DNA from: Gemmatimonadaceae bacterium
GTDB taxonomy: Bacteria > Gemmatimonadota > Gemmatimonadetes > Gemmatimonadales > Gemmatimonadaceae
Assembly (NCBI GenBank): GCA_036003045.1
Contig: DASYSS010000092.1
Location: 1 to 36,501 of the forward strand
DNA: 36,501 nucleotides
Direction of reading: 5' to 3'
Shown here: positions 18,381 to 21,830 of the stretch, piece by piece
Position numbering within the stretch: position 1 is the first letter of the stretch
Layout: each line of letters begins with the position of its first letter
Notes under the pieces: generated by a model
What the model saw: the letters and a program-made list of their open reading frames with translations, nothing else
Told to the model about the DNA's origin: nothing
Database searches by the model: none
Position numbers and translations under genes: made by a program

Positions 18381-18427
18381 GCAGTGGTCATATTAGCAAA
18401 CGGTCACACGTGCAAGACGGCCGCCGG

Positions 18428-18438
18428 TGCGTATTGTT
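18428..18438 (+). promoter_or_regulatory. Possible promoter -10 element TGCGTATTGTT
   Basis: This element lies about 47 bases ahead of the PH-domain protein gene. The identical 11-mer occurs on the opposite strand in front of the MFS transporter gene. No clear TTGACA-like -35 accompanies it, so the assignment rests on recurrence and position. Confidence 0.3.
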
Positions 18439-18483
18439 AAGCTCTCCACCGACAAAGCCACCTTCATTAGTAGGGTGTCCTGC

Positions 18484-19098
18484 ATGTCATACGTAGACTC
18501 GCAGCTGCTGCCGGGCGAAACGATTCGCTATCGCGCCCGGCTACACAAAGGAATCTTCACGACGGCCTCGATTGTCGGCGCGCTCACGGTTGCCGCGTTG
18601 ATCATCGCGATCGCCGCAGGGCACTGGTGGTGGGTCCTGGTCGCGGTCACGGGGGCGATCGCGGCCTACACGTTTGGTCGAGCCTGGCTGACCTATGCGA
18701 CGTCGGAGTTCGCCGTCACCGACAAGCGAGTCGTGATAAAGGTGGGCTGGATTCGCCGTCGGACGCTGGAGACGATGCTCTCGAAGGTCGAAGGGGTCGG
18801 CGTCGACCAGAGCCTGACAGGCCGCATGCTCGGCTACGGCTCGATCGAGGTCACCGGCACCGGTGGAACGAGAGAGGAGTTCACGCGAATCGCCGACCCG
18901 CTCGAGTTTCGACGCCAGGTGCAGGCGGCGATCAGCGCCGCCGACGAAGCACGCGCCGCCGTGTCCGCGCCGCCGGGCGGCTACCTGCCCGACGAACGCC
19001 AGGAACGCGAGTGCCCGTATTGCGCCGAGCGAATTCTCGTGAAGGCGAAGGTGTGCCGGTTCTGCGGCCGCGACGTGAGCGCCGTCGCGCCGACCTGA
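18484..19098 (+). CDS. Membrane protein with bacterial PH domain and C-terminal zinc ribbon
   Basis: The protein is 204 residues, taken from MSYVDSQLLPGE, the usual start of this family. Two TM helices (about 24-43 and 48-64) are followed by a bPH/DUF304 domain: YATSEFAVTDKRVVIKVGWIRR, with LETMLSKVEGVGVDQSL and YGSIEVTGTGG as the core. The C-terminus adds a zinc ribbon with CPYC and CRFC. It is expected at the inner membrane with the PH domain in the cytoplasm. The function of this family is unclear. It is divergent from the glycosyltransferase pair. Confidence 0.88.
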   Translation: MSYVDSQLLPGETIRYRARLHKGIFTTASIVGALTVAALIIAIAAGHWWWVLVAVTGAIAAYTFGRAWLTYATSEFAVTDKRVVIKVGWIRRRTLETMLSKVEGVGVDQSLTGRMLGYGSIEVTGTGGTREEFTRIADPLEFRRQVQAAISAADEARAAVSAPPGGYLPDERQERECPYCAERILVKAKVCRFCGRDVSAVAPT

Positions 19099-19111: not shown

Positions 19112-19339
19112 TCAACTACGCTCGAGCGGCTTGGCGTCCTTGTCGCTGCGCGTCGAGATTCGCAGCAGGAAGTAGATCACCGACCAGCCGGTCAGTGCTG
19201 AAATGAACAGGATGACCGAGATGCCGCCGACGATAGCGCCGGCAGTGCCGTCGTGCGCGGCGACGAAGAATAGAATAGCCAAAGCTCCGCCGAGCAGCAT
19301 CCGGATCGTTCGATCCGCGTCACCCATGTTTTGTTTCAT
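19112..19339 (-). CDS. DUF2892 (YgaP-type) small membrane protein
   Basis: The product is 75 residues and begins KQNMGDADRTIRMLLGG, the DUF2892 hallmark NMG-x-x-DR-x-x-R. Two TM helices follow (about 15-33 and 38-58), then a charged tail. Its ATG shares one base with the TGA of the DUF4062 gene (TGATG), so translation is coupled. It is an inner-membrane protein of unknown role. It is the last gene of the MFS/DUF4062/DUF2892 unit. Confidence 0.88.
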   Translation of the reverse strand: MKQNMGDADRTIRMLLGGALAILFFVAAHDGTAGAIVGGISVILFISALTGWSVIYFLLRISTRSDKDAKPLERS

Positions 19340-20193
19340 CACGATACCGGTTTCTGAGAGTCGGTCTTCGCCGCGTCGGCGGCGGCGAATCCGTCGCGCG
19401 TCAACTCGAACACCTCGCGCGCGGCGCTCGTCGCCCTGAGCAGCCCACTCTTCTCGAGCTCTTCGATCGCGCCTTCCCACCGCGCGAGCGTGCGCGGACT
19501 CGAGTCTTCATTGAAGACCTTGTCGTTCGAGCTGATCTCGGCGCCGCCGCCGAATCGCTCGAAGAGGACCACCCCCGACCCGTCCGCGCTCGCGGCAGAA
19601 AGCAGCATGAGCGCGTCGGGAGAGAGTGAGGCCCCGGCGACCCCCGAAGTCGTCTTCGGCCGCGCCATGGCGTCGGCCGACGCGACGCCGTCGGCGTTCA
19701 TGACGATCTGCAGATCCTTGGAGAACTGTCGCCGGAAGTCCTCGACGTCGGCGTAGCTCGCGTAAAGTCCTCGCGACCGGCACGAATCCTTGAACGTCTT
19801 GAGCGCTTGATACTGCGCCGGATCGACCGCGTCGAGCGGGGCGGGCGCCGACGAGAAGTAGAGCATCGCCGGCTTGCGCGCCTTGAGGTGCACCTCGATC
19901 TCTTCGACCGCTCCGCTCGCGTACGACGCCGTCGGCGTGCCGAGGCGCGTCCAGAAGATCCCGACGAGAAGGTCGGCGTCCGTGAGGATTCTCTTGTCGA
20001 TGATGCTCTGCGGTGCGTCGCCCATCTCGGGGGCGACATCCGTTTCCCAACCGACGGCCAGCAACATGACGTTGCGATGCGAGCCGTTGGTCGAGTTCCA
20101 CTCGCCGACGACTTCGCGGACCACGGCGCGCTCCTTCGGAACGTCGCCGGGCGAGGCGATCATCACGCGGAGAACGGTTGCGCTGAACGGCAT
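19339..20193 (-). CDS. DUF4062-domain protein with C-terminal winged-helix-like region
   Basis: The protein is 284 residues. The N-terminal domain (about 5-165) shows VLRVMIASPGDVPKERAVV, then SIIDKRILTDADLLVGIFWT, RLGTPT, ASGAVEEIEVHLKARKPAML and YFS. This is the DUF4062 pattern, a Rossmann-like fold related to TIR and nucleoside deoxyribosyltransferase-like domains. In such folds an acidic residue like E97/E98 can be catalytic, but that is inference here. The C-terminal part (about 190-270) has SPDALMLLSAAS and IEELEKSGLLRATSAAREVFELTRDGF, resembling a winged helix. DUF4062 often sits at the N-terminus of STAND NTPases; here it is free-standing. Confidence 0.85.
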   Translation of the reverse strand: MPFSATVLRVMIASPGDVPKERAVVREVVGEWNSTNGSHRNVMLLAVGWETDVAPEMGDAPQSIIDKRILTDADLLVGIFWTRLGTPTASYASGAVEEIEVHLKARKPAMLYFSSAPAPLDAVDPAQYQALKTFKDSCRSRGLYASYADVEDFRRQFSKDLQIVMNADGVASADAMARPKTTSGVAGASLSPDALMLLSAASADGSGVVLFERFGGGAEISSNDKVFNEDSSPRTLARWEGAIEELEKSGLLRATSAAREVFELTRDGFAAADAAKTDSQKPVS

Positions 20194-20202
20194 GCGTCGA
20201 AA

Positions 20203-21627
20203 TTACTCCAACAGCGGCCCGCCCGTCGCTCCCGCCGGCTGCAGCGTCCCCCCCGTCGGCGTACCCTGACTGCCCAGCGCCTTCCAGTCGCGCGGCGCAT
20301 CGGTGACGCGGCGTAGGATCAGGAACGCCACGATCACCATCACGAGCAGCGACAGGATCGCGAACGCCTCGCCGGTGAGAACGGGCATGCCGCTCCGCTC
20401 GACGATCAGCCAGGTCGTCCCGCCCCATACGAGCGGCCCGACGACCGCCGAGAAGCGTCCCACCATGCCGTACAATCCGTAGAACTCACCGACTCTGTCC
20501 GGAGGCGTGAGGCGCAGCATCAGCGGACGGTCCGACGCCCACGTGCCGCCGAGGCAGATGCCCGCCGCGCAGGCGACGACGAACAGCCAGCCGATGGTGA
20601 GGTGCAAAAAGCCGATCGAGGCGGCGCCAACGAAGGTGAGCATCCACCCCGTGAGCACGATATTGAGCGTTCGCTTCGGACCGATTCGGTCGACGATGAA
20701 GCCCCAGAGGATGCCGCCGACGATCGCCGCGCTGATGGCGACCATGAGCACGAGCTTGGCCTTCGCCTCGCCGTCCTGCTTGGTGAGCCCCGTCGAGATG
20801 GCGACGTTCACCGTGTAGAGGGACATGAACAAGATCACGGTGTTGATCGCGTCGGTGTAGAACGCGCGGCCAATGAGGAAGCGCAGCAGCCCGGGGAAAC
20901 GATGTCCCGACTTGAGTGTCTGAACGGTCTGACGCGTCGACTCGGTCACCGCCTGCGGAGTGAAGATCGGACGCGGATGAGCGTTGATGCGCTCGCGCAC
21001 GAACAGGAAGCACGGTGTGGCGAACGCCAGGAACGCGACGCCGATGAACAGGAAATAGTTGGCGAACGGGAACTCTTGCGTCTTGGAATCCATCAGCATG
21101 CTGACACCGACCGCGATGTACGAGCCGATGTACCCGATTCCGATGGCGATGCCGTTGATACGGCCGCGATTTTGTTCGGTGGTCACTTCGGGCAGCAGCG
21201 AGTCGTAGAATTGCACGCCTGCTTGATACCCGCCGTTGGCGACCACGAATGCCAACATGCTCAGCCAGAACGGTCCCCGGGCGATGAGGGCGGTCATCGC
21301 GCAGCAGATGATTGTCGCCCACATCAGGAACGGCATCCGGCGGCGCGCGCGGTCGGTCATCGCGCCAAGCAACGGCGAAATGCAGAACATGATGCCCATC
21401 GACACCGCGCTGATCCGACCGACGAGGCTGTCCGCTCGCTCGGATCCGACAACGGACCGGACGAAGAGCGAGAAGTTCAGCGACGTCACGCCCATCGAGA
21501 AGATGACGTTGGCCAGATCGTAGGTGATCCAGCTGACGACCGCCTTCCGCGGGATGACCCTGGTCGGCTCAGCCGTTCGCGCGGGGGCGGGGGCGGGGGC
21601 GGGAACAGGCCTAGAGGCGGAGGACAT
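20203..21627 (-). CDS. MFS transporter, UMF1/Atg22-like
   Basis: The protein is about 474 residues. The chosen ATG begins SSASRP, followed by a PAPAPAP linker. The transporter part starts with VVSWITYDLANVIFSMGVTS, the YD-x-A-N signature of UMF1/Atg22-like carriers. ISPLLGAMTDRARRRMPFL is the loop 2-3 MFS motif, and there are 12 likely helices, including a central cytoplasmic loop at about residues 205-245. The substrate is unknown; Atg22 relatives export amino acids. Its stop is nine bases from the DUF4062 start, giving an operon of three. Confidence 0.88.
   Translation of the reverse strand: MSSASRPVPAPAPAPARTAEPTRVIPRKAVVSWITYDLANVIFSMGVTSLNFSLFVRSVVGSERADSLVGRISAVSMGIMFCISPLLGAMTDRARRRMPFLMWATIICCAMTALIARGPFWLSMLAFVVANGGYQAGVQFYDSLLPEVTTEQNRGRINGIAIGIGYIGSYIAVGVSMLMDSKTQEFPFANYFLFIGVAFLAFATPCFLFVRERINAHPRPIFTPQAVTESTRQTVQTLKSGHRFPGLLRFLIGRAFYTDAINTVILFMSLYTVNVAISTGLTKQDGEAKAKLVLMVAISAAIVGGILWGFIVDRIGPKRTLNIVLTGWMLTFVGAASIGFLHLTIGWLFVVACAAGICLGGTWASDRPLMLRLTPPDRVGEFYGLYGMVGRFSAVVGPLVWGGTTWLIVERSGMPVLTGEAFAILSLLVMVIVAFLILRRVTDAPRDWKALGSQGTPTGGTLQPAGATGGPLLE
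21581..21604. repeat. Hexanucleotide tandem repeat coding for Pro-Ala
   Basis: Three exact GCGGGG units and one GCGGGA unit encode the PAPAPAP stretch at the N-terminus of the MFS transporter. The unit is in frame, so slippage would only change the length of the tail. Confidence 0.8.
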
Positions 21628-21685
21628 CGTTCTGCGCCGATCCTCGGAAAGGTGTAACCGAACGATGCGGGTCTGCGGACCGGGG

Positions 21686-21696
21686 AACAATACGCA
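21686..21696 (-). promoter_or_regulatory. Possible promoter -10 element of the MFS operon
   Basis: Read leftward this is TGCGTATTGTT, the same 11-mer found before the PH-domain gene. It lies about 60 bases upstream of the MFS start and within the 203-base gap after the sigma factor gene, where an operon promoter is needed. No good -35 is visible. Confidence 0.3.
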
Positions 21697-21830
21697 GGAC
21701 GACGTAGACACGGACAGGCTCGGTACGGAGCCGATGCATTTGACCCTCTCTCCGTTGTATTGTGCGTGCCGGCCGGCGGGCCGAGCGAAGTGTCAGGTGA
21801 GGACCGCGGCGGCGTAGGCGGCCTGCTACG

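What the first reader, a model, noticed from the sequence alone, without database searches (positions are those of the whole stretch)
19112..21700. MFS transporter, free-standing DUF4062 protein and DUF2892 peptide in one tightly coupled operon
The MFS stop is nine bases from the DUF4062 start, and the DUF4062 stop shares a base with the DUF2892 start. DUF4062 is a TIR/deoxyribosyltransferase-like domain often fused to STAND ATPases in signalling or defence proteins. Here it is free, has a winged-helix-like C-terminus, and is packaged between two membrane proteins. A sensor or effector unit with its own exporter and small membrane partner would be new to me. Antiphage or stress function is a guess.
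Basis: partly seen in the sequence, partly recalled or inferred. Interest (0 to 1): 0.6.

Follow-up and report, generated by a model that had tools for sequence, protein, structure and literature searches.

The report
Lone TIR-like NADase-type phage-defence gene
The middle gene is very probably a stand-alone bacterial anti-phage protein of a recently described kind (a TIR-like enzyme that would destroy NAD+ when a sensor domain detects a virus), and the two membrane-protein genes beside it look like accidental neighbours rather than partners.

Summary
The three-gene unit is not conserved. Thirteen distinct loci with full-length homologues (28-51% identity) show neither an MFS orthologue nor DUF2892 in the flank held. 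Three loci with MFS orthologues (53-78%) carry neither partner, and congeners lack all three genes. The middle protein has a TIR/nucleoside-deoxyribosyltransferase fold at residues 5-169, an almost invariant pocket with Glu97-Glu98, and a predicted winged-helix C-terminus. Glu98 aligns with the catalytic Glu97 of KpSwz, the DUF4062 NADase of the Swarozyc anti-phage system (PMC13174449, May 2026 preprint). It belongs to a separate, uncharacterised DUF4062 clade found in E. coli, cyanobacteria, plasmids and prophage-bearing contigs, often beside defence genes. Best explanation: a horizontally acquired, single-gene abortive-infection NADase with a C-terminal phage sensor, now sitting in an ordinary chromosomal operon. 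It is a new member of a known kind. No activity or phage trigger has been tested.

The parts
19339..20193 (-). DUF4062-like protein, 284 aa: TIR/NDT-fold domain (aa 5-169), linker (aa 168-190), predicted winged-helix C-terminal domain (aa 190-278)
19897..19917 (-). catalytic motif S93-G94-A95-V96-E97-E98-I99; E98 aligns with the catalytic Glu97 of KpSwz
20203..21711 (-). MFS transporter of UMF1/Atg22 type, upstream neighbour; probable true start ATG at 21627; not part of the proposed defence function
19112..19339 (-). 75-aa YgaP-like_TM (DUF2892) membrane protein, downstream neighbour overlapping by one base; not part of the proposed defence function

Best explanation
The gene at 19339-20193 encodes a single-protein anti-phage effector that works like Swarozyc. 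An N-terminal TIR-like domain (shown: fold and conserved pocket) is kept inactive until the C-terminal winged-helix domain binds an infection-specific ligand such as a phage structural protein (inferred from KpSwz). Binding assembles the protein into oligomers, and the TIR-like domain then hydrolyses NAD+ using Glu98 (inferred), stopping growth before phage are released. The gene was gained horizontally (inferred from patchy occurrence and the tree). It is probably co-transcribed with an unrelated UMF1-type MFS transporter and a small YgaP-like membrane protein, which are not functional partners.
For: AF2 model residues 5-169 align with DNPH1 (Z 12.7) and with TIR domains of SPARTA (10.9), AbTir (10.3) and SARM1 (9.9). 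S14, D17, E21, D74, S93 and G85 are invariant and W49, W81, R83, E97 and E98 near-invariant in distant relatives. hhalign to KpSwz-type proteins gives P 2e-6 with E98 on the catalytic Glu. PADLOC candidate-defence profile PDC-S60 matches at 1.8e-31. Homologues sit beside defence genes: ThsB_TIR + 8xMP (L053), a TIR protein similar to PDC-S66 (L047), type I R-M (L039), a DUF3696 AAA ATPase matching NsnB (L091) and another DUF3696 ATPase (L056). Some lie on plasmids and prophage-bearing contigs. Only 4 of 179 family genomes carry one, and tree neighbours mix phyla. DUF4062 NADase and defence: PMC13174449.
Against: No assay exists for this clade. The best structural matches are DNPH1/NDT nucleotide hydrolases, so the substrate may not be NAD+. 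Identity to KpSwz-type proteins is about 18%, and the winged-helix domain shows no sequence similarity to the KpSwz AUX domain. The window itself holds no other convincing defence gene or mobile element.
Confidence: 0.72

Rival explanations
1. The three genes form one functional module: the DUF4062 enzyme makes or senses a small molecule that the MFS protein exports or imports, with the YgaP-like protein as membrane partner.
For: 9-nt spacing and a one-base overlap imply co-transcription and possible translational coupling.
Against: None of 13 distinct full-length homologue loci has an orthologue of either partner in the flank held; none of 3 MFS-orthologue loci has the other two; congeners lack all three. 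L038 has an unrelated MFS_1 protein about 0.8 kb downstream, with an opposite-strand ORF between.
Confidence: 0.05
2. The TIR/NDT-fold domain hydrolyses a nucleotide other than NAD+ (a DNPH1-like N-glycosidase acting on nucleoside monophosphates), still as a phage-triggered effector.
For: The closest structural matches are DNPH1/Rcl structures, Z about 12-12.7; viral matches are mostly nucleoside deoxyribosyltransferases.
Against: TIR domains score nearly as well (Z about 10-11). The only DUF4062 domains assayed with activity, KpSwz and TEP1, are NAD(P)ases (PMC13174449), and the Glu aligns with theirs.
Confidence: 0.15
3. A housekeeping or regulatory protein: the winged helix is a DNA-binding domain and the TIR-like domain a nucleotide sensor controlling the MFS operon.
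For: Winged-helix topology in the model, weak HTH_45 matches (2 of 11 members) and a weak match to an HxlR-type regulator.
Against: No conserved target operon; occurrence is patchy and mobile; the KpSwz AUX winged domain binds a phage portal, not DNA (PMC13174449).
Confidence: 0.07

Closest known systems
Swarozyc (KpSwz; PDB 10wc, 11cq, 11cv; PMC13174449)
   Same: Single protein of N-terminal DUF4062 TIR-like domain with a catalytic Glu at the same position, plus a C-terminal domain of HTH/winged type; patchy, mobile, near defence genes.
   Different: About 18% identity to KpSwz-type homologues, a long, fully supported branch apart in the tree, IASPGD instead of VSST N-terminal motif, a different C-terminal sequence, and trigger unknown.
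PDC-S60 (PADLOC candidate defence protein, 906 aa)
   Same: N-terminal 165 residues match at E 1.8e-31.
   Different: The PDC-S60 profile is 906 aa and only its N-terminus matches; here the protein is 284 aa with a winged-helix domain instead.
TIR-domain NADases (SARM1, AbTir, SPARTA TIR-APAZ)
   Same: Fold and likely chemistry (Z about 10-11).
   Different: No detectable sequence similarity; different C-terminal module.
DNPH1/Rcl and nucleoside 2-deoxyribosyltransferases
   Same: Best structural match (Z 12.7).
   Different: No winged-helix domain, and a metabolic rather than defence role (own knowledge).

Membership tests
DUF4062 (PF13271) | Profile match at or above the Pfam gathering score | tested here: inconclusive
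   16.2 bits against 24.7, E 0.012, near-complete profile coverage. Homologues 42-46% identical over their length carry the DUF4062 label from NCBI. Treated as a divergent DUF4062-like clade.
DUF4062 / TIR-like NADase | TIR-like five-stranded alpha/beta fold | tested here: met
   AF2 model: beta-alpha repeats over aa 6-167; TIR and NDT structures at Z 10-12.7
DUF4062 / TIR-like NADase | Conserved catalytic Glu in the S-x-T-x-x-E motif | tested here: met
   S93-G-A-V-E-E98; conserved in all relatives aligned except L037; aligns with the KpSwz E97 position
DUF4062 / TIR-like NADase | NAD+ hydrolysis | not testable with these tools
   no biochemistry available
Swarozyc | C-terminal AUX domain homologous to the KpSwz winged/HTH portal-binding domain | tested here: inconclusive
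   Predicted winged helix, but no sequence match of the C-terminal profile to the KpSwz chain; hhalign aligns only aa 7-204
Swarozyc | Same DUF4062 clade as KpSwz | tested here: not met
   KpSwz-type sequences form a separate clade, 100/100 support, branch 4.29
Swarozyc | Activation by phage portal and phage protection | not testable with these tools
   needs plaque and NADase assays
Three-gene MFS-DUF4062-DUF2892 module | Conserved gene neighbourhood | tested here: not met
   0 of 13 homologue loci and 0 of 3 MFS-orthologue loci; congeners lack the genes

The most novel reading that the evidence does not exclude
The compact 'IASPGD' DUF4062-winged-helix clade is a second, widespread class of single-gene anti-phage system, distinct from Swarozyc, with its own phage trigger read by an unrelated winged-helix sensor and possibly a nucleotide substrate other than NAD+.
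Probability: 0.3. Interest if true: 0.5.

Novelty: new member of a known kind. Interest (0 to 1): 0.27.

Why it matters
If right, it turns a puzzling operon into a simple, testable prediction: a ready-made single-gene abortive-infection enzyme with a known chemistry and an unknown viral trigger. Its clade is uncharacterised, small (about 280 aa) and present in E. coli (WP_054627070.1, 46% identical), so trigger and substrate can be found in a standard laboratory host. It also shows that tight operon spacing alone is a poor guide to function for mobile defence genes.

Tried and rejected
Empty-site reconstruction in congeners was not possible: the nearest bPH_2 orthologue (G002, 68%) sits in different surroundings, so the local gene order is not conserved even within the genus. 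The C-terminal domain folded alone gave a poor model (pLDDT 54) and was not used. The C-terminal profile against PDB sequences gave only weak hits, an HxlR-type regulator at E 0.08. PHROGs and NCBIfam gave nothing for the DUF4062-like protein, and the phage genome collection had no match. KpSwz was not among the fold-search rows; that library holds entries released up to April 2026. A defence island in the window was rejected: neighbours are glycosyltransferases, a bPH_2 protein, an ECF sigma factor, YCII and an amidohydrolase; the only PADLOC match, a methyltransferase-like ORF (mad2, 2e-7), is weak. Promoter and terminator scans gave nothing above chance.

Full report
Observation. The three ORFs, strands, the 9-nt gap and the one-base TGATG overlap are exactly as stated. 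The middle protein matches Pfam DUF4062 only below the curated cut-off (16.2 against 24.7 bits). Its 41-46% identical homologues in Synechococcus plasmids and E. coli are annotated as DUF4062, and the N-terminal 160 residues match the PADLOC candidate-defence profile PDC-S60 at 1.8e-31.

Is it a module? In the window's genus (6 genomes) only the window genome has the DUF4062-like gene. No congener has an MFS orthologue (best 36%), and the only congener match to the 75-aa protein is weak (33%, E 1e-4). The orthologous MFS genes of three related genera (53-78% identity) have neither gene beside them. Thirteen distinct loci with full-length DUF4062-winged-helix homologues have neither an MFS orthologue nor a DUF2892 protein in the flank held: L037, L038, L039, L047, L048, L049 (identical protein in L050), L051-L056 and L091 (identical locus L092). 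Flanks differ in length; some viral contigs end close to the gene. L038 has an unrelated MFS_1 protein about 0.8 kb downstream across an opposite-strand ORF, and an HGSNAT-type membrane acyltransferase upstream, which shows how easily membrane neighbours arise.

What the protein is. Alignments over distant relatives keep S14, D17, E21, D74, G85 and S93 invariant and W49, W81, R83, E97 and E98 near-invariant. The AF2 model (mean pLDDT 75) shows a beta/alpha repeat domain at residues 6-167, a disordered linker, and an alpha-beta-beta-alpha-beta-beta-alpha C-terminal domain, i.e. winged-helix-like; two of eleven C-terminal relatives hit HTH_45 weakly. Residues 5-169 align with DNPH1 at Z 12.7 and with the TIR domains of SPARTA, AbTir and SARM1 at Z 10-11.

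Link to a known system. A May 2026 preprint (PMC13174449) shows that DUF4062 domains are TIR-like NADases. KpSwz of Klebsiella pneumoniae protects E. coli from phage by abortive infection, needs E97, and senses the phage portal through a C-terminal HTH/winged domain. The PDB sequence collection holds KpSwz (10wc, 11cq, 11cv). Its chain reads SFTEKAFDYA where a Vibrio homologue reads SYTEKEFDYA. Because the preprint's structure is of the E97A mutant, I infer that this Ala marks E97. MAFFT and hhalign both place window E98 on that position (hhalign P 2.4e-6).

Not the same clade. In a tree of the N-terminal domains the KpSwz-type proteins stand apart on a branch of 4.29 changes per column with 100/100 support. 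The window protein sits in a 14-row clade (96/96) of proteins with the same compact architecture; two members carry C-terminal extensions (L047, L056). Within that clade phyla mix: G095, from the window's own family, groups with E. coli and a viral contig, and G050 groups with another viral contig. With 4 of 179 family genomes carrying any homologue, this points to horizontal transfer. I therefore describe it as working like Swarozyc, not as a member of it.

Defence context elsewhere. L053 lies directly downstream of a ThsB_TIR gene and an 8xMP gene. In L047 the gene abuts a TIR protein similar to PDC-S66. L039 lies about 3 kb from a type I R-M locus. In E. coli (L091) it sits in a mobile element with a MobQ relaxase, next to a DUF3696 AAA ATPase that matches NsnB; L056 also has a DUF3696 ATPase nearby. 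A Salmonella copy of the domain sits next to a phage terminase and is cut short before an IS3 element. I did not measure the enrichment against a matched background. The window's own surroundings are ordinary chromosomal genes.

Mechanism, shown and inferred. Shown: fold, conserved pocket, architecture, distribution, lack of conserved partners. Inferred: NAD+ as substrate, E98 as catalyst, ligand-induced oligomerisation, winged helix as sensor, abortive infection, horizontal gain. The main open points are the substrate (NAD+ or another nucleotide, given the DNPH1 similarity) and the trigger.

Verdict. A real gene with a satisfying and now largely known explanation. The operon claim is ordinary. 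The remaining interest is an untested clade of a newly described defence family.

Noticed in passing
L037:3874-4686: Verrucomicrobial homologue with the same two-domain layout but the SGTVEEI motif changed to SDTMAQI and the region around W81/R83 lost: possibly a catalytically dead relative.
   Followed up: partly
L047:4642-7578: Caulobacter plasmid pCB4: a TIR_2 protein (452 aa, similar to PDC-S66) directly abutting a 525-aa DUF4062-winged-helix protein with a long C-terminal extension; looks like a two-gene defence operon.
   Followed up: partly
L091:8968-12460 and L056:6001-10170: DUF4062-winged-helix genes near DUF3696 AAA ATPases (NsnB match in L091) in two unrelated contigs; a possible recurring pair.
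   Followed up: partly
L053:3717-5731: ThsB_TIR gene, 8xMP membrane protein and DUF4062-winged-helix gene in a row on a viral contig.
   Followed up: partly
L087:4001-4573: Salmonella prophage copy of the DUF4062 domain next to the terminase gene, truncated before an IS3 transposase.
   Followed up: no
window 18427-19098: bPH_2 domain protein with a C-terminal zinc ribbon, convergent with the cluster; orthologue (68%) in only one of five congeners, in different surroundings.
   Followed up: partly
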